Assembly: GCF_900116205.1 (NCBI RefSeq)
Contig: NZ_FOZS01000001.1
Coordinates: 434,001 to 498,000, forward strand
Direction of reading: 5' to 3'
From: Halostagnicola kamekurae
GTDB lineage: Archaea > Halobacteriota > Halobacteria > Halobacteriales > Natrialbaceae
Length of the DNA stretch: 64,000 nucleotides
Below the pieces are notes generated by a model, which worked only from the letters and a program-made list of their open reading frames with translations, did not search any database and was not told where the DNA came from. Positions 31,101 through 64,000 of this stretch are shown here, one piece after another. The position numbers and the translations under genes were made by a program. Numbering within the stretch: position 1 is the stretch's first letter; the number at the start of each line of letters is the position of its first letter.

Positions 31101-32927
31101 TTACGAGTCGAGGATCCGCGCCCCGATCGGGGATTCGAGGACCGTCATGAGTCGGTAGAGGTCCTCACCGGCGTCTATCTCACCCGCCCGGTGGCGTCGG
31201 TAGGTCTCCCGAACCTGCGACCACTCGAGCGAGGACAGCGCGCGTCCTCGAGATTCGGTGCGCTCTAGGGCCGTCTCGAGGAAGTCGGTCGCGCGGATCA
31301 CTTCGTCCTTGTCCTGTAGCGGCCCCTCCGTTCGGAACGATTCCGGCCCGCGCACCTTCGCAAGCTGGTTCGTGACCCGGTTGCCAACCATGTGGACCGC
31401 CTTGTGTGAGGAGACCGGAACGGCCGAGGAGGCGTCCCTGACGGCGGCGAGTGACGGGTCCAGTTTCGCCATCGCCCGGTGGACCGGGTCGTACCGGAGC
31501 CGGTATTTCAGCGGCATCTCGAGGTGGAGGTCGATGAGCCGGCGATCCAGCAGCGGCGTTCTCGTCCGGGTGATCTGGGACGACGCGAAGAGGTCGAAGC
31601 CGATGCCGTTCGTGATCGGGTAGAGGAAGGTACTGAGCGACATGGCTTCGGGCGACTCGTACTCGACGCCGTGATCGGAGACGCGTCCGTTCGGCTTCCG
31701 GCCGACGTTCTCCGTCATGATTTCCTCGTAGGAGGGGGCGCGGAGCGCGGGCGGTTGGCGCGTCGGATCGTCGGCGACCCGGCGGGCGACGAACTCGTCC
31801 GTCGTCGTGGGGACCTGCGAGACCGGCGGCCAGAGCGTGACGCCGAAGGGGAGGGAGATCTCGCGCTGTGGCACCCCCCACGATCCGAAGAGCACGTCGC
31901 AGTACAACCCCGTGAACAGCACGTCCATCTCGGCGAGCCGTTCCGCGTACCCGAGCATGTGGCCGGACTGGAACGAGCCGACGAACTCCTGAATGGGCGC
32001 CGCACGCTCTAACAGCGTCGCGTGATAGTCGCGACCGCGCTCGAGGAGTTCGAACTCGGCACCGGCCGCGTTCGCCGCCTGTTTGGCGTATCTGGCCTCG
32101 CGATTCCACCCATCGCCCATGTGAAAGCAGGTCAGCTCGGAGCCGCCGGCCGCCAGCACCGACCGAGAGTCGCTCCCCCCGCTCAAAAGCAAGCCGGCGT
32201 CGCCGTCGTCTCGCGGCATTCGATCGGCGACCGCCCGCTCGAACCGATCGGCGAGTTCGGACACGAAGTACGACAGCGGCTTGTCGACGGGCCGGTACCT
32301 GGGCTCCCAGTACTGCCGCTCGTCGAGAACGCCGGCCTCGAGATCGTAGCTCAGTCGAGTCGCCGGAGCGATCTGTTCGATCCCCTCGACGGGCGTCTTC
32401 GTGCCGTGAACGCGCCGGGAGTAGAGATACTCCGCGAGATACGACTCCGAAAACGTCGGCGTGTAGCCGGGGATCTCCGGCACCGCCTGAACGCTGGTCG
32501 AGAAGGCGATGGCGTCGTCGCCGACGGCGTAGTAGAGCGGGCGCGCGCCGACGCGGTCGGAGAAGAACGTCGCCGTTTCCGCGCTCGGATCGTACAGCAG
32601 AACGATGAACTCTCCGTCGAGGCGTTCGACGAACCGGTCGCCGTACTCGTCGTACAGGTCGGCACACACCCGCGCGGTCTCGAACGGGTCGACTCGCGTT
32701 CGCTCGCCCCGGTCGTCGGTCACGCCGAAGACTTCGCCCCACACCCAGACGAGCGGGCCGCCTTCGGTTTCGACGGGTTGCTCGACCGTCGTCCCCTCGT
32801 GAAACGCCGTTCGGACGACGATCCGCTCGTCGCGATAGCTGTTCGTTCGTTCGTCGCTCACCGTCGGTCGCACCGTCTCGACCTCGAGTCCCCCGTGTTC
32901 GCCGACGACGCCAGAGAGCCCCACCAT
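31101..32927 (-). CDS. Asparagine-synthetase-like protein without the glutaminase cysteine
   Basis: A 608-residue AsnB-like protein. The N-terminal Ntn-type domain starts MVGLSGVVG, where working glutaminases have MCG with Cys as nucleophile; no Cys is available at position 2. The rest of that domain is recognisable (DRVGARPLYYAVGDDAIAFSTSVQAV). The synthetase domain has the PP-loop LLLSGGSDSRSVLAA near residue 248 and later RTRTPLLDRRLIDLHLEMPLKYR. Similar Cys-less relatives use ammonia or act as amide-forming ligases; homologues are often found near polysaccharide genes. A perfect 16-base palindrome lies upstream at 33034-33049. Confidence 0.85.
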   Translation of the reverse strand: MVGLSGVVGEHGGLEVETVRPTVSDERTNSYRDERIVVRTAFHEGTTVEQPVETEGGPLVWVWGEVFGVTDDRGERTRVDPFETARVCADLYDEYGDRFVERLDGEFIVLLYDPSAETATFFSDRVGARPLYYAVGDDAIAFSTSVQAVPEIPGYTPTFSESYLAEYLYSRRVHGTKTPVEGIEQIAPATRLSYDLEAGVLDERQYWEPRYRPVDKPLSYFVSELADRFERAVADRMPRDDGDAGLLLSGGSDSRSVLAAGGSELTCFHMGDGWNREARYAKQAANAAGAEFELLERGRDYHATLLERAAPIQEFVGSFQSGHMLGYAERLAEMDVLFTGLYCDVLFGSWGVPQREISLPFGVTLWPPVSQVPTTTDEFVARRVADDPTRQPPALRAPSYEEIMTENVGRKPNGRVSDHGVEYESPEAMSLSTFLYPITNGIGFDLFASSQITRTRTPLLDRRLIDLHLEMPLKYRLRYDPVHRAMAKLDPSLAAVRDASSAVPVSSHKAVHMVGNRVTNQLAKVRGPESFRTEGPLQDKDEVIRATDFLETALERTESRGRALSSLEWSQVRETYRRHRAGEIDAGEDLYRLMTVLESPIGARILDS

Positions 32928-33033: not shown

Positions 33034-33049
33034 TTTAGGCTAACCTAAA
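33034..33049 (-). promoter_or_regulatory. Palindromic putative operator, site 1
   Basis: TTTAGG-CTAA-CCTAAA, perfect 6-base arms with a 4-base spacer, 107 bases upstream of the asparagine-synthetase-like start. On the minus strand it reads through CCTAAATAG, which may double as a TATA element. The same palindrome occurs at 60055-60070 and in degenerate form at 58497-58512. It resembles operators for DtxR/IdeR-like metal-dependent repressors; that assignment is inference. Confidence 0.6.
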
Positions 33050-56592: not shown

Positions 56593-58398
56593 TCATCGGC
56601 GGCCCTGTACGGCGTAGAGATCGGCGTACTCCCCGTCGTTTTCGACGAGTTCGTCGTGCGAGCCGACTTCCGTGACGACGCCGTCGTCGAGCGTGTAGAT
56701 GCGGTCCGCGTTCTGGACGGTCGAGAGGCGGTGGGCGACGGTGACGACGATGTACTCTCGATCCATCGTCTCGAATCCGCGCTGTACCTCTCGTTCTAAG
56801 TTCGTGTCCAGATCGCTCGTCGCTTCGTCCAAAAGCAACACGTCGACGTCGTCTATGAGCGCTCGAGCGATGGCGACGCGCTGTTTCTGGCCGCCGGAGA
56901 GGCGGACGCCGTCGTCGCCGACGGACGTGTCGTAGCCGTTCGGGAGGTCCTCGAGGAACTCGTCCACCCGCGCGAGTTCGCAGGCTCGGTCGATCTCGGC
57001 ATCCGTGGCGTCCCTGTCGGCGATCGTCAGGTTGTACCGGAGCGTGTCGTCGAAGATGTACGGGTCTTGGCTGACGACCGCGATCCGGTCGCGCCAGGCC
57101 GAAATGTCCATCTCCCCGATCGGGACGCCGTTCGCCCTGATCTCGCCGCCGGTCGGCTCGTACATGCGCGAGAGCAGGGAGACGACGGTCGACTTTCCGG
57201 CCCCGGACTGTCCGACGAACGCCACGAACTCCCCTCGCTCGACGGCGAAGTCCACTTCCTTCAGCACGTCGGTCTCGCCGTCGTACGAGAAGGTGACGTC
57301 GGTTGCGGTGATCGACTCGACCCGGTCTGGAACCGCGCGTTCGGCGGTGTCCGGTTCGGCGTTCTGGGCGAGATCGCGCGTGAACTGGCGGGTCCGCACT
57401 AGGTGGGGGAGGTCGTGGCCGATCCGGTAGAACAGCTCGTTCGCCCGACTCGCCTTCGGCCCCAGCCTGAACATCGCGAACAGAAAGAGCCCGAGCGAGC
57501 TGAGCGTCAGGTCGACGTAGGTGAGCGAGACGTAAATGAGCGCGAACACGGACACCGCGACGGTCAGCTGATAGAAGTTGTTGATCGCGGCCTGATTTCG
57601 CCGGAGCTTGATTCGTGCGCTCGTATACTGCTCGACTGAGTCGACGAAATCCCCGTACAACTCGTCGACGAGCCCGAAGATCCGGCTCTCTCGCATCCCC
57701 TGAATGCCGGCCTGGGCGGTTTGCTGGCGCCGTTCGTTCGCGTCCGCGACCCTGTCGCCGATGTCGCCGTCCGGCTCGATGACGACTCGCAGTAACAGCG
57801 TCACGCTCCCGAGAACGGCGACGGTAAGTACCGTCAGACGGGGCGAGATGACGAACGCGATGAGTCCGTAGACGGCCCCGAGAAACGATTGCTCGAGGAA
57901 CAACACCAGCCGCCGAATAACCTGTCCCGCGTGAAACGTCTGGGTGATGATCGCGTTCAGCGTGTCGTCGGACCCGACGTCGTCTACGTACGCGATCTCG
58001 GCCTCGAACGCGTTCGCGAACGCCTCCGTCTGGAGGTCTCGTATGTAAGACATCCGGAGGATTTCGCGGAGCCACGCCACGAGAAAACTCGCCGCGAACC
58101 GTATCGTCATGACGACGGCGACGCCGATCACCGCCGTCCCCAGTGTCAGCGGAACGTTCACGGTCTGATACACCGTCGCGAACGCGCCGAGGTTTCCGCT
58201 CTGTCCGGGCTGGCCGCCTGACTGGACCAGCTCGATGATCGGCAGCAAGAAGCTCAGCCCCACTCCCTCCAACACGGCGGCGACGATTCCGACGCCTACG
58301 ATCAGTACCGTGAGTCGCGGGTCGTACTTGAGAACGCTGATCAGGGCGTCGATCTTCTCTCGTCTCGACGCGGTCGGCGTATCGACATCTGCTACCAT
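56593..58398 (-). CDS. ABC exporter, fused membrane and ATPase domains
   Basis: A 601-residue MsbA/PglK-like half-transporter. Six hydrophobic helices in residues 30-345, then the ATPase: GQSGAGKSTVVSLL near residue 389, VVSQDPYIF (Q-loop), RLSGGQKQRVAIARALI (signature), LLLDEATSDLD (Walker B) and TVAHRLSTVQ (H-loop). PglK-like enzymes flip lipid-linked glycans, so this is a plausible flippase for the locus. A degenerate copy of the palindrome lies about 100 bases upstream; a TATA-like TTTATACGC lies at 58441-58449 on the minus strand. Confidence 0.93.
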   Translation of the reverse strand: MVADVDTPTASRREKIDALISVLKYDPRLTVLIVGVGIVAAVLEGVGLSFLLPIIELVQSGGQPGQSGNLGAFATVYQTVNVPLTLGTAVIGVAVVMTIRFAASFLVAWLREILRMSYIRDLQTEAFANAFEAEIAYVDDVGSDDTLNAIITQTFHAGQVIRRLVLFLEQSFLGAVYGLIAFVISPRLTVLTVAVLGSVTLLLRVVIEPDGDIGDRVADANERRQQTAQAGIQGMRESRIFGLVDELYGDFVDSVEQYTSARIKLRRNQAAINNFYQLTVAVSVFALIYVSLTYVDLTLSSLGLFLFAMFRLGPKASRANELFYRIGHDLPHLVRTRQFTRDLAQNAEPDTAERAVPDRVESITATDVTFSYDGETDVLKEVDFAVERGEFVAFVGQSGAGKSTVVSLLSRMYEPTGGEIRANGVPIGEMDISAWRDRIAVVSQDPYIFDDTLRYNLTIADRDATDAEIDRACELARVDEFLEDLPNGYDTSVGDDGVRLSGGQKQRVAIARALIDDVDVLLLDEATSDLDTNLEREVQRGFETMDREYIVVTVAHRLSTVQNADRIYTLDDGVVTEVGSHDELVENDGEYADLYAVQGRR

Positions 58399-58529: not shown

Positions 58530-60047
58530 TCACCGTCCGTTTTCGCGACCGATTCGTTTCGAAACCCCCGAAACGAGTAGCGAGAGCGCGTCGCGGAGCA
58601 CTCGCCCGACCTGTCGCGTAACGATTTTCGCGTCGAGCCAGAGCGATTGGGTCTCGATGTACGCCAGATCGTATCGCAGTTTCGTTCTGGGGGTCTCGCT
58701 CGAGGCGTCGTTCACCTGTGCGAGTCCGGTCAGGCCCGGCTTTACGAACCACCGTTTCTTCCACGTTCGAACCTCCTCCTCGAGGAGTCGTTCCTCTTCG
58801 GTCCAGGCCGCTCGCGGTCCGACGACGCTCATCCTCCCGGTGAGGATGGCCCAGAGCTGCGGCAGTTCGTCGAGGTGCGTTTTCCGAAGGACCCACCCGA
58901 CCCGCGTGATGCGGTCGCGAGGCTGGCCGGGCGTCGCAGATTCGCTCTCCGGGAGCATGCTCCGGAACTTGTAGACCTGGAACGTGTCGCCGAACTGTGT
59001 CGTTCGCTCCTGAGTGTAGAAGACTGGACCGGGGCTGTCGAGTTTCACGGCGGCGGCGACGACGACCATCACCGGGAGCGCACAGAGGAGCCCGAGCCCG
59101 GCGAAACACAGATCGAACAGCCGCTTTCCGACACGACTTCGAAACCCCCATGGCTGCAGGTCGATCCCGACGAGGTTCGAACGCGCGTCCGTGCCGGCCC
59201 GCTCGTCTTCTACCAGCACGCTCCGGTCGTGTTCCGCGAGCGTCTCGACCTCGACGTTGTGACGGTGACACGCCTCGAGAACGCCGAAGAACTCGTTTCG
59301 GTCGGCTCGGGGAAGGGCCGGAATGACGGTTCCGACGGTCGACTGCGCCAGGATTTCCTCGAGCGCTGCGCGATCGCTCAGTCGGTCGAAGTTCGCCAGT
59401 TCGGGCACCGACCGCTCGACGCCCCCGTCGGTACTGATTCGGTTCGTCCGCCCGTCCTCGCCCGAGCGGACCGACGTGTACGTGTAGCCGACGACGGGTT
59501 TCGTCGTCGCCCGCATCGCGGCCTCGATCTGGCTCGGATCGGTGCCGACGATCAGCGTTCCCTCGGTTCGGTTGCGCAGGAAGCGCTGGAGGCCGACGAA
59601 CCAAAGCGACAGCGAGAGAGCCAGAAACCCGATCGAGAGCGCGAGCGTCTTCGGTGGGAGACGAACTGCGAACCCGACGTAGCCGATCGTCCCCAGAACG
59701 AGGCCGACGAGGGCGAGCGATCGAAGTGTCGTTCGAACCGTCTCGAGAACGCGCCGCGACTTCGGTTTGCACAGCGGCGCCATTCCGGCGACCGCCACGG
59801 CGACCACCACTCCGAGCGCCAGTAGCGGTTCGGCGCTGGCGACGGACTGTTCGGACGGTCCGCTCGTCGGTGAGAGGTCCCTGTCGAGTACTGCCCGAAT
59901 CAGGGGGGTATTTACGAGGAGAAAACAAAGCACCGTTATCGTAGCCGTACCCGTGACGGCGAGCGCGCGATAGGCGGTTTTCGGATGCACGCCACTCTCT
60001 TCCCCCCCAATCGTCACCGACGATTGCGACTGTGCGTCCGCGGTCAT
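58530..60047 (-). CDS. Polyprenyl-phosphate sugar-phosphate transferase (WbaP/PglC-like)
   Basis: A 505-residue protein that starts a glycan on a lipid carrier. About five N-terminal hydrophobic helices, a nucleotide-binding-like middle (GTLIVGTDPSQIEAAM), then the catalytic domain from about residue 310: KRLFDLCFAGLGLLCALP, DSPGPVFYTQERTTQFG, FQVYKFRSM, KTHLDELPQLWAIL, MSVVGPRA and KPGLTGLAQV. The start ATG lies eight bases from the perfect palindrome at 60055-60070. First committed enzyme of the locus. Confidence 0.94.
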   Translation of the reverse strand: MTADAQSQSSVTIGGEESGVHPKTAYRALAVTGTATITVLCFLLVNTPLIRAVLDRDLSPTSGPSEQSVASAEPLLALGVVVAVAVAGMAPLCKPKSRRVLETVRTTLRSLALVGLVLGTIGYVGFAVRLPPKTLALSIGFLALSLSLWFVGLQRFLRNRTEGTLIVGTDPSQIEAAMRATTKPVVGYTYTSVRSGEDGRTNRISTDGGVERSVPELANFDRLSDRAALEEILAQSTVGTVIPALPRADRNEFFGVLEACHRHNVEVETLAEHDRSVLVEDERAGTDARSNLVGIDLQPWGFRSRVGKRLFDLCFAGLGLLCALPVMVVVAAAVKLDSPGPVFYTQERTTQFGDTFQVYKFRSMLPESESATPGQPRDRITRVGWVLRKTHLDELPQLWAILTGRMSVVGPRAAWTEEERLLEEEVRTWKKRWFVKPGLTGLAQVNDASSETPRTKLRYDLAYIETQSLWLDAKIVTRQVGRVLRDALSLLVSGVSKRIGRENGR

Positions 60048-60054
60048 TGGAGGT

Positions 60055-60070
60055 TTTAGGCATACCTAAA
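60055..60070 (-). promoter_or_regulatory. Palindromic putative operator, site 3
   Basis: TTTAGG-CATA-CCTAAA, perfect 6-base arms. It lies between the minus-strand TATA-like TTTTATTTT (60068-60077) and the sugar-phosphate transferase ATG, a position where a bound repressor would block initiation. Same arms as site 1 at 33034-33049. Confidence 0.65.
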
Positions 60071-60280
60071 ATAAAAGTGTGCAGGTTTCGTCGTCGCGAG
60101 CCGAAATGTCGAGAGAGTTACGTTTCCGTCCGATAATTCGCCGTGTCCGTCGGTTCAGGTCCCACGACCGTTTCACGATAGATAGCGACCAGCACCCGTT
60201 CGGGCGCGATGTTCGTATCGACGTCCCCTCGGTATAGTCAGGGTTATCTTCGTGTGAAGTGTCTCACACTCAGATGGGCC
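60071..60280. other. Divergent spacer in the polysaccharide locus
   Basis: About 210 bases between the sugar-phosphate transferase and the polymerase. Contains the AT-rich promoter of the former near 60068-60080. An open frame from 60209 joins the polymerase gene, but its first 24 residues are unlike a membrane-protein start. Confidence 0.4.
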
Positions 60281-61765
60281 ATGGGAAGCAGGTCATCTAT
60301 CCCGGACCCCCGTTCGCCCCTCGGTCGTTCCTCGACCTCGAGTAGTCGCCCCTATACCGCATCTGCAGCCCTCCTGACCGCGCTCTTCGTGTTCGTCGTC
60401 CCGTCGGTTGCTATCGTGACGGACTTCTCCGTTTTTCGGTTGCTCGTCGCGGCGGTTCTCGCGTACGCCCTCGCGGTATATTGGCTGGACGCCGCCTTCG
60501 AGGGAGCCTGTGCGGCGGTTATCGTCCTCGCGGTCTTCAATATAACCGCCTCCGCGGTCGTTCCCGTCACCGGCGGCCGCTCCGTCCGCATCGTCGACGT
60601 ACTGCTCGTTGGGACGCTGTGCTGGCTACTCGCCCGCCGCCAGTACGCGCCCTTCTCGAGCCTCCGAAAGAGCGGTCGGCTGATCGTCGCCTTCTTCCTG
60701 ATTTTCGTCCTCTGGACGTTTCTCGCGGGCGTCGTCGGGAACGGCCCCTCGAGCGAAGCGGCGTTTCTGTACGCTCGAGCACAGTTCCGATACGGGCTGT
60801 TGTGCGTGACGGCGGCCCTGCTCGTCGAGACGACGGATGTCCGCTCCGTCCTTTATCCGCTCGTCGTCGCGCTCGGCGGTTCGCTCGCGTTCGCCGTCGA
60901 CGAGATATTCTCCGGCGCGAGCGGGTATCCGAGCCACTTCGGCGCTCTCGGGACGACGCTGCAGGGAATCTGGCCGACGCCGTCGCTCACGTCGTTTCCG
61001 GTCGATTCGTCGATTCTCTACGCCGGCCCGCCGGTCGGTCAGAATCGGATCGTGGTCGGGATGGCGATCTTTTTCGTCCCGCTGGTCGTCGCGGCGGTGG
61101 CACGCTCGCGACTGCACCCGGCGCTTTCGGTCGCCGGCGTACTCGGCGTCGTGAGCGTTCTTGCCAGCACGGCGGATTCGGCGTATATCGCCCTGTGTGT
61201 TGCGATCGCGGTCGTCGCGGTCTACTGGTGTCACGTCGTTCTCGGACGCTACGGGCTGTCTCGAGCCCAGTCGCTGTTCCTCCCGCTGTCGATGCTCGTC
61301 GGGGCGATCGCGATCCTCTGGGGAATCGGCGCGATCGCGGCCGGACGAGAGGAGATTTTGTTCGTCCAGACGAATCATCTGGGCGTCCGCCTGCGAGAGT
61401 ATGCGGTCGCCGTCGACGTCGCCGCCCGGTATCCGCTGTTCGGGGTCGGTGGGGGCGAAAACTTCGAACGGCTGATGGACCGACGGTGGGGCGTCCACAA
61501 CCTGTTTCTGGCGAATCTGGTCGCGACGGGCGTTCCGGGCTTTCTGGCGTACGTGTTTTCCGTGATAGGTGCAACCTGGCTCTGTGTCGAACGACTCCTG
61601 CGGTCTGGCCTCGACGAGCGGTGGATCTGGGTCGGTGTCCTCGCCGCCGTGCTCGGATTCTACGCGTACGCGTTCTGGACGATCGCGTTCCAGCGGGAGA
61701 CGCTGAACGCGGTCTACTGGATACTCGTCGGGACCACGATCGGGGCCTCGTGGGGAGGTCAGTGA
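60281..61765 (+). CDS. Wzy/O-antigen-ligase-like polymerase
   Basis: A 494-residue polytopic membrane protein with ten or more helices. The region GVGGGENFERLMDRRWGVHNLFLANLVATGVPG is given here in parts: VGGGENFERL and VHNLFLANLVATG resemble the Wzy_C loop, with a conserved HN in front of a helix. Such proteins polymerise or ligate lipid-linked repeat units on the outer face of the membrane. ATG 60281 is chosen over the frame opening at 60209. Confidence 0.82.
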   Translation: MGSRSSIPDPRSPLGRSSTSSSRPYTASAALLTALFVFVVPSVAIVTDFSVFRLLVAAVLAYALAVYWLDAAFEGACAAVIVLAVFNITASAVVPVTGGRSVRIVDVLLVGTLCWLLARRQYAPFSSLRKSGRLIVAFFLIFVLWTFLAGVVGNGPSSEAAFLYARAQFRYGLLCVTAALLVETTDVRSVLYPLVVALGGSLAFAVDEIFSGASGYPSHFGALGTTLQGIWPTPSLTSFPVDSSILYAGPPVGQNRIVVGMAIFFVPLVVAAVARSRLHPALSVAGVLGVVSVLASTADSAYIALCVAIAVVAVYWCHVVLGRYGLSRAQSLFLPLSMLVGAIAILWGIGAIAAGREEILFVQTNHLGVRLREYAVAVDVAARYPLFGVGGGENFERLMDRRWGVHNLFLANLVATGVPGFLAYVFSVIGATWLCVERLLRSGLDERWIWVGVLAAVLGFYAYAFWTIAFQRETLNAVYWILVGTTIGASWGGQ

Positions 61766-61915: not shown

Positions 61916-63031
61916 ATGTCACCGAACACAGCAACCGACGACGCGGTCAACGTTCTGCAGGTGTGTACGTACTACTACCCGTTTACCGGCGGTATACAGA
62001 ACGTCGTTGAGAGTCTGGTTACCGGAATCGACTCCGTCCGGTTTCGCATTCTCGCCTCACAGCCCCGCGGACGCCCCAGCGTCGACGAGGTCGACGGAAC
62101 GACGGTCGTCCGGGCCGGGAGTCTTGGCGCCGTCGCGTCGACGCCGATCAGCCCGACGTTTCCGTATCTGCTACGGAAACAACTCGAGTGGGCTGACGTC
62201 GTTCACTACCACCTGCCGTTTCCGCTCGGTCCAGTCAGTCACCTGCTCAATCGAGCGGCCGTTCCGGTCGTCGTGACGTTTCACGACGACATCATCGACA
62301 AGGAGCCGTTCGTCTATCCGTACAACCGGGTGCTCGATCGGTTCCTCCGCGGGGTCGATACTATCATCGTCTCCTCGCCGAACATGCGAGACGAGTGCGC
62401 TCGCATTTCGAAATTCTCGGCGAAAACGACGGTGATCCCGCTCGGGATCGACGTCGACGAGACGTCGGTCGAGCCCCGGACCCGCGAGGGAACGAGGCTC
62501 CTGTTCGTCGGTCGACTGGTGGAGTTCAAGGGCGTCGAATACCTCATCTCTGCGATGCGGAACCTCGACGCGTCGCTTTCGATCGTCGGAAAAGGTCCCG
62601 CTCGAGAGAGTCTCGAGCGACACGCCGAGGCAGAAGGCGTCTCGCAGAAAGTGACGTTCGAGGGCTTCGTCTCAGACGAGCGATTGGAGCAGTTGTACCG
62701 CGACGCGGACGTCTTCGTCCTGCCGTCGGCGGGCGAAAACGAATCGTTCGGCATCGTCCAACTCGAGGCGATGAGCCACGGACTGCCGGTCATCAACACG
62801 GCGCTTCCGACCGGCGTCCCCTTCGTGAGCGTCGACGGGGAGACCGGCCTCACCGTCGACCCGGGCGAACCAGACCAGATCGCCGACGCCGCCAGAACGC
62901 TGTTCGAAGACGACAATCGGTATCGTCGCTATTCGGCCAACGCACAGCGTCGCGTTATCTCGAAGTTCGACGAGCAGGAGATGCTCGAGCAAACCGCCGA
63001 CGTCTATCGAGACGTGCTAGAGCGCGCGTGA
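61916..63031 (+). CDS. Glycosyltransferase family 4
   Basis: A 371-residue GT-B fold enzyme. N-terminal half: LQVCTYYYPFTGGIQNVVESL, VVHYHLPFPLGPVSHLL. C-terminal half: LLFVGRLVEFKGVEYLISA, GKGPARESLERH and GENESFGIVQLEAMSHGLPVI, the donor-binding E-x7-E pattern of GT4. It adds a sugar to the lipid-linked glycan on the cytoplasmic side. Confidence 0.94.
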   Translation: MSPNTATDDAVNVLQVCTYYYPFTGGIQNVVESLVTGIDSVRFRILASQPRGRPSVDEVDGTTVVRAGSLGAVASTPISPTFPYLLRKQLEWADVVHYHLPFPLGPVSHLLNRAAVPVVVTFHDDIIDKEPFVYPYNRVLDRFLRGVDTIIVSSPNMRDECARISKFSAKTTVIPLGIDVDETSVEPRTREGTRLLFVGRLVEFKGVEYLISAMRNLDASLSIVGKGPARESLERHAEAEGVSQKVTFEGFVSDERLEQLYRDADVFVLPSAGENESFGIVQLEAMSHGLPVINTALPTGVPFVSVDGETGLTVDPGEPDQIADAARTLFEDDNRYRRYSANAQRRVISKFDEQEMLEQTADVYRDVLERA

Positions 63032-63125: not shown

Positions 63126-64000
63126 ATGGGAGTGCTGGCGACCGTCGTCGTGGCGTGTCTGTTCGCGCTGGTTAGCCGACACCGTTCGCGGGTCTATCGA
63201 TACGCCGGCGGCGTCGCGCTCGCGGGGCACGTTTTCGTCGCCGTCGCCGTCGTTCCCCGGCTTCCCTACCAGTGGGACGTTCCGCTCTTTCACGAGAACG
63301 CGATGCGAATACTCGCCGGCGGCGAGACGGCGCCGCTGTCGGTCCTCGACGCCTTCGGGACGGTTCAGGCGCTCGTATACGCGCTCTTCGGCGCCGATCC
63401 GACGACGCTCGCGATCGTCAACGGACTGTTCGCGGTGCTCATCCCGCTCCCCGCGTGCTATCTCGCCGATCGGCTCTACGGGTCGCTCGAGTCGACTGAC
63501 GGCCTCCTGCTCGCCTTGCTTTTTCTCCCCGCCCCGTTCGTGTTCAACAGCCTCCCCATGCGCGACGCGCTGTCGACGCTGCTCGCGCTGGCGCTGATCG
63601 CGCTCGTCGTTCGGGTTCTCGTCGACGGCCGGTACTGGTCGGCGCCCGCTCTGCCGCCGCTCTGGGGGATGTTGTTCCTGCTTCGGGAGGAACTCGCCCT
63701 GCTCATCCTCCTAGGGGCCGCCGGGTCGATTCTCGTCGCGGTGGCCACGGAACTCACCGGTGGACGACTCTCGCTCGCGTCGCTCTCGCTGGTCGCGACC
63801 CCGATCGGCCTCGCCGGATTCGCGTTGTTCTCCCGGCTGTTCCCGGTCGACATCCTCAACGCTCGACTGCAGTACCGGTCTGTGGGCGGGGCGGCCTACC
63901 TCGAGCCCATGCACTACGAGTCGTGGTTCGACGTGGTTCTCGCCGCGCCGGTCCGCGCGATCTACTTCCAGTTCGCGCCGTTTCCGCTCCACGTCGATTC
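63126..64000 (+). CDS. Polytopic membrane protein, GT-C-like, cut by window end
   Basis: The frame from ATG 63126 stays open to the window end, giving 291 residues without a stop. Hydrophobic helices are frequent (MGVLATVVVACLFALVS, LVYALFGADPT onward, LLLALLFLPAPFVFNSLP, LSTLLALALIALVVRVLV). Short loops with QWDVPLFHENA and MRDALSTLL resemble dolichyl-phosphate-mannose-type or EpsG-like membrane glycan enzymes, where an Asp in the first loop is catalytic. Assignment is tentative because the C-terminus is missing. Strand and position fit the polysaccharide locus. Confidence 0.65.
   Translation, partial: MGVLATVVVACLFALVSRHRSRVYRYAGGVALAGHVFVAVAVVPRLPYQWDVPLFHENAMRILAGGETAPLSVLDAFGTVQALVYALFGADPTTLAIVNGLFAVLIPLPACYLADRLYGSLESTDGLLLALLFLPAPFVFNSLPMRDALSTLLALALIALVVRVLVDGRYWSAPALPPLWGMLFLLREELALLILLGAAGSILVAVATELTGGRLSLASLSLVATPIGLAGFALFSRLFPVDILNARLQYRSVGGAAYLEPMHYESWFDVVLAAPVRAIYFQFAPFPLHVD

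What the first reader, a model, noticed from the sequence alone, without database searches (positions are those of the whole stretch)
31101..32927. Asparagine-synthetase-like enzyme without the nucleophilic cysteine
The N-terminus is MVGLSGVVG instead of MCG, so the glutaminase cannot work, while the SGGSDS PP-loop of the synthetase domain is intact. Cys-less relatives include beta-lactam synthetase and lasso-peptide cyclases, which close amide bonds without glutamine. With the shared palindrome, it may modify a glycan or peptide precursor for the cell surface.
Basis: partly seen in the sequence, partly recalled or inferred. Interest (0 to 1): 0.5.

Follow-up and report, generated by a model that had tools for sequence, protein, structure and literature searches.

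The report
Iron-regulated archaeal siderophore ligase candidate
In a few salt-loving archaea, an asparagine-synthetase-like enzyme that has lost its glutamine-using cysteine sits in an apparently iron-controlled gene cluster for making an iron-scavenging molecule, in the place usually taken by the enzyme that joins the pieces, which suggests a new way of assembling such molecules.

Summary
In detail: window 32927-31101 (-) is an intact 608-aa asparagine-synthetase-like gene with Val at the nucleophile position, an intact SGGSDS loop and no upstream MCG start. Cys-lessness is not special to it: none of 33 haloarchaeal homologues aligned has Cys2. What is special is the context. Its clade occurs in 7 of 391 haloarchaeal genomes sampled (plus 2 found otherwise). 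In 8 of these 9 genomes a member follows, by 1-15 bp, an IucB-type acetyltransferase and an N-hydroxylase, where 5 of 5 schizokinen-type loci examined have the NIS synthetase IucC. Six of the nine show no IucA/IucC match; five of five tested show no NRPS condensation domain. The shared palindrome looks like an iron box (TTAGGN4CCTAA): exact at the window gene and its G042 orthologue, with one mismatch at all eight operons. Best reading: an iron-regulated amide ligase that assembles a hydroxamate siderophore in place of a NIS synthetase; the window copy is a diverged, solitary second paralogue. This genome also has IucA/IucC genes, so its own pathway may be mixed. Iron-box-bearing glycan genes beside the operon allow a bolder reading, a glycan-linked siderophore. 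The reaction itself is inferred, not shown.

The parts
31101..32927 (-). Cys-less asparagine-synthetase-like gene, 608 aa (paralogue 'A' of the siderophore clade)
32481..32741 (-). degenerate glutaminase (GATase_7) domain as matched, residues 63-149; Val2 (outside the match) in place of Cys, Trp63 in place of the NGE Asn
31491..32258 (-). synthetase (Asn_synthase) domain as matched, residues 224-479
32166..32183 (-). PP-loop SGGSDS, residues 249-254, invariant in 10 of 10
33035..33048 (.). iron box TTAGGCTAACCTAA, 107 bp from the start codon; on the gene's strand it runs into a TATA-like CCTAAATA (by eye)
60056..60069 (.). second iron box TTAGGCATACCTAA, between the divergent sugar-transferase and Wzy_C genes
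58530..60047 (-). polyprenyl glycosylphosphotransferase-like gene (EPS_sugtrans 284.1 bits against cut-off 295.55), iron box 8 bp upstream
56593..58398 (-). ABC exporter, likest to HepA/MsbA models but below their cut-offs; conserved in the cluster; one-mismatch box upstream
60209..61765 (+). O-antigen ligase/polymerase-like membrane protein (PF04932)
61916..63031 (+). GT4 glycosyltransferase of the cluster
63126..64000 (+). 410-aa membrane-protein-like gene of the cluster (no Pfam match), cut by the window end; the GNAT-hydroxylase-AsnS operon follows outside the window at G000:C1:502461-506243 (L005:7461-11243)

Best explanation
The gene encodes one of two paralogous amide ligases of an iron-regulated hydroxamate-siderophore pathway. 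Shown: its clade is operonic with an N-hydroxylase and an IucB-type acetyltransferase, is preceded by iron-box-like sites, and takes the place of the NIS synthetase in genomes most of which show none. Inferred: the hydroxylase and acetyltransferase make an N-acetyl-N-hydroxy amine (from lysine or a diamine); the AsnS-like enzyme adenylates a carboxylate in its PP-loop domain and, having no glutaminase, uses the free amine of this building block as nucleophile, much as beta-lactam synthetase uses an internal amine, so joining hydroxamate arms to a scaffold. The window copy (paralogue A) is a diverged second ligase, perhaps for a second coupling step, with its own iron-controlled promoter.
For: Operon GNAT-MO-AsnS co-directional in 8 of 8 clusters (GNAT/MO overlap 4-8 bp, MO-to-AsnS gap 1-15 bp). 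GNAT is PF13523 (2.8e-52), MO is PF13434 (2.4e-112); MO's second and third best PDB matches are the desferrioxamine hydroxylase and putrescine N-hydroxylase, GNAT's include MbtK and DfoC. In 5 of 5 other IucB loci examined the GNAT-MO pair is followed by a PF04183 protein, the order published for Haloferax (PMC7407949, passages); these 5 were picked from the 77 GNAT-bearing genomes that lack the clade. PF04183 unmatched in 6 of 9 genomes with the clade; PF00668 in 5 of 5 tested. The only strong PF13434 match (E about 1e-110 or better) is the one beside AsnS in 5 of 6 genomes tested, the sixth, G004, having none. Clade in 7 of 391 genomes, all 7 among the 84 with PF13523. One branch, support 100/100; 0 of 14 stretches around more distant homologues (14 of the 20 found) show GNAT or MO relatives. 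Boxes (up to 1 mismatch, 250 bp upstream): AsnS-A 2 of 2, GNAT 8 of 8, FbpA 8 of 8, against 14 of 368 other genes. Elsewhere in this genome exact boxes lie just before FecCD, siderophore-binding (PF01497) and IucC genes.
Against: No chemistry is shown. G000 itself carries three PF04183 genes and a bdb relative on another contig without hydroxylase or acetyltransferase of their own, so here the GNAT-MO pair could feed a NIS synthetase; G187 (2) and G004 (1) also have PF04183. GNAT also resembles aminoglycoside acetyltransferases (best NCBIfam models, all far below cut-off; AAC(6')-Ib second among PDB matches), and MO's best NCBIfam model is a histamine N-monooxygenase (438 of 700 bits). The clade lacks the Tyr of CarA (TGYGSD) at the aligned position (Leu341), so a BLS/CarA-type catalytic dyad is not supported. 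G004 (A56) has the gene split over two frames and no strong hydroxylase. All eight GNAT-operon boxes carry one mismatch, and the exporter has a box in only 5 of 8. The importer is of FbpABC (ferric ion) type, not a classic siderophore type. The AlphaFold model was too poor to use (pLDDT 39.9).
Confidence: 0.6

Rival explanations
1. Ammonia-dependent tailoring: the enzyme converts a carboxyl group of a siderophore or sugar acid into a primary carboxamide with free ammonia, and some other ligase assembles the backbone.
For: AsnS-like SidA is reported as required for a late conversion in siderochelin biosynthesis, where it was sought as the amidotransferase (PMC11481915, section title and one passage). 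The PP-loop domain is intact.
Against: SidA is predicted to be glutamine-hydrolysing, whereas the glutaminase here is altered at two positions. Six of nine genomes show no PF04183 and five of five tested no PF00668, leaving no evident backbone ligase of the two known kinds; the position is that of IucC.
Confidence: 0.15
2. Surface-glycan enzyme: it joins an amino compound to a sugar acid of an exopolysaccharide or glycolipid, and the siderophore genes are only neighbours.
For: GT4, GT2, sugar transferase and exporter genes recur in the cluster; sugar-transferase genes have boxes in 5 of 5 plus 2 more that turned up among the control hits; some distant homologues lie near glycan genes (L115, L119).
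Against: The clade is operonic with GNAT-MO in 8 of 8, 1-15 bp apart, and directly followed by a co-directional glycosyltransferase in only 2 of 8 (L071, L073). AP308 and GT4b genes have no box (0 of 6 each), and relatives of AP308 are widespread without the clade (182 of 391 genomes at E 1e-60).
Confidence: 0.15
3. The window copy alone is a relic or has been recruited to another iron-stress role, only the cluster paralogue being the siderophore ligase.
For: The window copy lies about 36 kb from the operon between hisS-like and Kae1-like genes (names by eye); a 62% paralogue stays in the operon; relative A56 has a split gene.
Against: dN/dS 0.18-0.26; exact iron box kept here and at the G042 orthologue, which lies inside the siderophore cluster; A paralogues form their own branch 100/100.
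Confidence: 0.1

Closest known systems
IucA/IucC (NIS synthetase) schizokinen/aerobactin-type pathway of haloarchaea and bacteria
   Same: Same hydroxylase and acetyltransferase families, same gene order IucB-IucD-ligase, iron-linked regulation
   Different: Ligase is of the asparagine-synthetase superfamily; no dat/bdb genes seen in the cluster; importer is FbpABC type; glycan genes recur beside it
Beta-lactam synthetase and carbapenam synthetase (CarA)
   Same: Cys-less (recalled) N-terminal domain plus a PP-loop synthetase domain; matches 1jgt at 3.3e-08 (profile) and 1q15 at 1.1e-06 (single sequence)
   Different: Intermolecular coupling proposed here, not ring closure; CarA's TGYGSD Tyr column is Leu; 608 aa against 503-513; different pathway
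Hydroxyamidotransferase 7ylz (TsnB9 of trichostatin biosynthesis, name recalled) and AsnB-like ActJ/MatC of hydroxamate metalloproteinase inhibitors (PMC5719088, one passage)
   Same: 7ylz is the best PDB sequence match (7.2e-16 with the profile); AsnB-like proteins in hydroxamate pathways
   Different: Here the hydroxamate would be made by hydroxylase plus acetyltransferase; the AsnS-like enzyme would form the backbone amide
Haloarchaeal 'asparagine synthase-related protein' family
   Same: Cys-less, SGGxDSR in nearly all, 32-41% identical; the clade nests among them
   Different: 0 of 14 distant stretches show the siderophore pair; contexts include ATP-grasp-like partners and glycan genes
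SidA of siderochelin biosynthesis
   Same: Asparagine-synthetase-like protein in a siderophore cluster
   Different: Predicted glutamine-hydrolysing and sought as a primary-amide maker; siderochelin is not a hydroxamate (recalled)

Membership tests
Asparagine synthetase B (glutamine-hydrolysing) | N-terminal catalytic Cys at position 2 of the precursor | tested here: not met
   Val2, no upstream start; 0 of 10 clade members
Asparagine synthetase B (glutamine-hydrolysing) | NGE motif (oxyanion-hole role recalled) | tested here: not met
   WGE, Trp63 invariant 10 of 10
Asparagine synthetase B (glutamine-hydrolysing) | Passes the equivalog score TIGR01536 | tested here: not met
   107.7 bits against cut-off 267.1
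Asparagine-synthetase superfamily (PF00733) | PP-loop ATPase domain with SGGxDS | tested here: met
   50.9 bits against cut-off 21, SGGSDS invariant
Beta-lactam synthetase / CarA | Cys-less N-domain | tested here: met
Beta-lactam synthetase / CarA | Catalytic Tyr in TGYGSD (role recalled) | tested here: not met
   Aligned residue is Leu341 in TGLYCD; Tyr342 is one position on (CarA only; the BLS alignment does not reach this motif)
Beta-lactam synthetase / CarA | Intramolecular ring closure of an amino acid | not testable with these tools
   needs enzymology
Lasso-peptide / macrolactam cyclase | Passes family model score | tested here: not met
   NF033535 51.8 bits against 525; NF033561 42.8 against 300
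Lasso-peptide / macrolactam cyclase | Precursor peptide and leader peptidase beside it | not tested
   none noticed among the genes called, but short ORFs were not searched systematically
NIS synthetase (IucA/IucC) | PF04183 domain | tested here: not met
   Pfam scan of all 10 members gives only PF00733, PF13537, PF13522
NIS synthetase (IucA/IucC) | Operonic with hydroxylase and acetyltransferase | tested here: met
   8 of 8 clusters for the clade; the window copy itself stands alone
Iron regulon | TTAGGN4CCTAA-type box upstream | tested here: met
   that it is an iron-repressor site is inferred from neighbours, binding not tested

The most novel reading that the evidence does not exclude
A glycan-borne siderophore: the Cys-less AsnS ligases couple N-acetyl-N-hydroxy-amine arms to sugar acids of a lipid-linked oligosaccharide built and flipped by the co-regulated glycosyltransferases, sugar transferase and PglK/MsbA-like exporter. 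The resulting surface or secreted glycan carries several hydroxamates, captures Fe(III) and passes it as bare ion to the FbpABC importer, so iron is scavenged by a polymer instead of a small free siderophore.
Probability: 0.18. Interest if true: 0.85.

Novelty: new variant of a known kind. Interest (0 to 1): 0.62.

Why it matters
Siderophore backbones are known to be joined by NRPS or by NIS synthetases (recalled). A pathway where an asparagine-synthetase-like ligase does this would be a third chemical route, would predict siderophores in haloarchaea that lack IucA/IucC, and would give a function to one branch of a large family now annotated only as 'asparagine synthase-related'. The glycan genes with the same boxes raise the testable possibility of a glycan-linked chelator.

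Tried and rejected
One search translated the gene one base out of frame and was replaced. The first class survey found 5 of 391 genomes and missed G244 and G395, noticed through; the profile search gave 7 of 391. Substrate choice: MO matches diamine hydroxylases well, but a relative of bdb, which supplies diaminopropane in the schizokinen pathway, was not found (E 1e-30) in G030, G042, G133, G187, G220 and was found in G000, G244, G395 and the control G057, so lysine, diaminopropane or another diamine cannot be told apart. In the full alignment the Enterobacter AsnB row is misaligned around residues 334-352, so the comparison of that motif rests on the CarA alignment. AP308 (phosphatase-like by eye; no Pfam or NCBIfam match) as marker of the cluster was rejected: 182 of 391 genomes have a relative.

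Literature: searches combining asparagine synthetase/synthase or siderophore terms with hydroxamate, amide bond, archaea, haloarchaea, glycan, exopolysaccharide, Halarchaeum showed no paper on such a pathway among those listed; the lists were capped (30 of 187, 20 of 112, 10 of 72), and most subscription papers are not held. The archaeal DtxR regulon paper (PMC4285986) is not held.

Full report
1. Observation. The ORF at 32927-31101 (-) encodes 608 aa starting MVGLSGVVG. Upstream in frame there are 39 codons without ATG/GTG/TTG before a stop, so no MCG start was missed. Pfam gives Asn_synthase (2.4e-13) and GATase_7 (1.3e-10). It scores below the curated cut-offs of the asparagine synthase, lasso cyclase and macrolactam cyclase models. 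The PP-loop SGGSDS is intact. Besides Cys2, the Asn of NGE is replaced by Trp63; Val2 and Trp63 are invariant in the ten clade members aligned.

2. Cys-lessness is a family trait. I aligned 33 haloarchaeal homologues: 10 of the clade, 20 others (19 from genome-search loci or stretches, one plasmid copy) and 3 more distant ones. None has Cys2; five have Cys at position 5. Starts came from my own gene-calling script or the record, and H_L033 and H_L119 may lack their true N-terminus. The missing Cys alone therefore says little about the role of this gene.

3. The clade. A 62% paralogue lies at G000:C1:504414-506234, 6.4 kb past the window end. Apart from the 93% A56 relative, members in other haloarchaea are 52-73% identical. 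A profile search finds the clade in 7 of 391 genomes drawn from the class; G030 and G004 add two. The ten full-length members form one branch with support 100/100; window gene plus G042 copy A form a sub-branch with 100/100. G004 is of the window's genus and its contig has the length of a Halostagnicola sp. A56 contig, so the window is probably from a Halostagnicola.

4. The operon. In G000, G042, G030, two Halarchaeum, G220, G187 and G133 a clade member follows a GNAT and a monooxygenase: GNAT/MO overlap 4-8 bp, MO-AsnS gap 1-15 bp. The ninth genome, G004, has only the solitary copy. GNAT is Acetyltransf_8 and MO is Lys_Orn_oxgnase. PDB matches of MO: an unnamed monooxygenase (6xbb), then the desferrioxamine hydroxylase and putrescine N-hydroxylase; of GNAT: BH2621, AAC(6')-Ib enzymes, MbtK, DfoC. 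NCBIfam gives only sub-cut-off matches, AAC(6') models for GNAT and histamine N-monooxygenase for MO. Five other IucB loci, picked from the 77 GNAT-bearing genomes without the clade (L131, L135, L136, L138, L139), show GNAT-MO followed by a PF04183 protein in 5 of 5, as published for Haloferax (PMC7407949, passages only). The AsnS gene thus stands where IucC stands.

5. No other ligase of the known kinds is evident. PF04183 is unmatched in G030, G042, G061, G062, G133, G220 and present in G000 (3), G187 (2), G004 (1). PF00668 is unmatched in G000, G030, G042, G061, G062. G061 and G062 are the genomes of the Halarchaeum loci L052 and L054, 4-kb pieces of which recur exactly in G395 and G244. 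The strong PF13434 match is the operon gene in 5 of 6 genomes tested; G004 has none; four of them have further weak matches over the family cut-off. All 7 clade genomes are among the 84 of 391 with PF13523 at E 1e-30 (hypergeometric 1.7e-5, which ignores relatedness). By contrast 0 of 14 stretches around homologues at 32-41% identity (14 of the 20 such matches) show a GNAT or MO relative; in L108 my gene caller left about 7 kb around the AsnS gene uncalled, so 13 are fully informative.

6. Iron control. With up to one mismatch to TTAGGN4CCTAA within 250 bp upstream: AsnS-A 2 of 2 (exact), GNAT operon 8 of 8 (all with one mismatch), FbpA 8 of 8, exporter 5 of 8, sugar transferase 5 of 5, GT4b 0 of 6, AP308 0 of 6; other genes of these and 14 non-cluster stretches 14 of 368 (overlapping stretches make some genes count twice). 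The heads were chosen after I had seen some boxes, so this is a description more than a blind test. Nine of the 14 control hits are themselves cluster genes (sugar transferase, GT4a, GT2, DUF4330). I looked at 15 of the loci around the 19 exact sites of this genome: some lie directly before FecCD, Peripla_BP_2 and IucC genes; ferritin-like and Fe_dep_repress genes lie within about 0.9 kb of one but not directly behind it; several sites have neighbours without an evident iron role. That the box is bound by a DtxR-type repressor is inference from its likeness to the bacterial DtxR site (recalled; PMC1382209 seen in the listing only).

7. Glycan genes. Three GT4, AP308, a 410-aa membrane protein, an MsbA/HepA-like exporter and a sugar transferase recur with the operon at 50-80% identity in most clusters (sugar transferase 34-40% in G030 and G042, where the gene is cut by the stretch end); GT2 is seen in five stretches and DUF4330 in five. 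Several have boxes. The importer beside it, with FbpA in 8 of 8, is of ferric-ion type (7w3w, 1.2e-46). These facts are the basis of the novel case and equally of a plain co-localised EPS locus.

8. Mechanism. Shown: loss of two glutaminase residues, retention of the PP-loop, operon partnership, iron-box-like sites, no NIS match in six of nine carriers. Inferred: adenylation of a carboxylate and attack by the free amine of an N-acetyl-N-hydroxy amine. The acceptor scaffold and whether the amine comes from lysine or a diamine are unknown. CarA's TGYGSD aligns with TGLYCD here, so the catalytic base differs from CarA and remains to be found.

9. The window copy. It is solitary between hisS-like and Kae1-like genes, has its own exact box 107 bp from the start codon, and is under purifying selection (NG86 dN/dS 0.18 and 0.19 for the two A56 pieces, 0.26 against G042 A). 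Its orthologue in G042 lies in the cluster beside FbpABC, so the solitary place is probably secondary.

10. Limits. G000 has NIS genes without their own hydroxylase and acetyltransferase, so precursors may be shared; no expression or chemistry data exist here; gene calls come from a simple codon-bias script.

Noticed in passing
L074:5479-13819 (G000:C4): A second siderophore locus with IucA/IucC, decarboxylase and aminotransferase-like genes and several exact iron boxes, but no hydroxylase or IucB-type gene of its own; the only strong ones found in the genome are in the AsnS cluster.
   Followed up: partly
L051 / L053 (Halostagnicola sp. A56): The 93% identical relative of the window gene is split over two overlapping frames; assembly error or decay cannot be told apart, and no strong hydroxylase gene was found in that 83% complete genome.
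   Followed up: partly
L052:17821-19251 and L054:17999-19429: A 476-aa probably exported protein (by eye) with an exact iron box 20 bp upstream in both Halarchaeum loci and no Pfam match.
   Followed up: partly
L109, L110, L111, L113, L120: Distant Cys-less AsnS homologues are directly followed by a ~350-400-aa protein; three of them scanned match ATPgrasp_Ter weakly (6.2e-07 to 1.2e-04, one over its cut-off): a recurring AsnS/ATP-grasp pair of unknown function.
   Followed up: partly
L005:4996-5922 (AP308): 308-aa phosphatase/sulfatase-like protein (by eye) with no Pfam or NCBIfam match, yet relatives in 182 of 391 haloarchaeal genomes.
   Followed up: partly
L006:5191-6885, L007:4888-6693: Two further divergent AsnS-like proteins in the same genome, also without Cys2; one has SAGYDSR in place of SGGxDS.
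   Followed up: no
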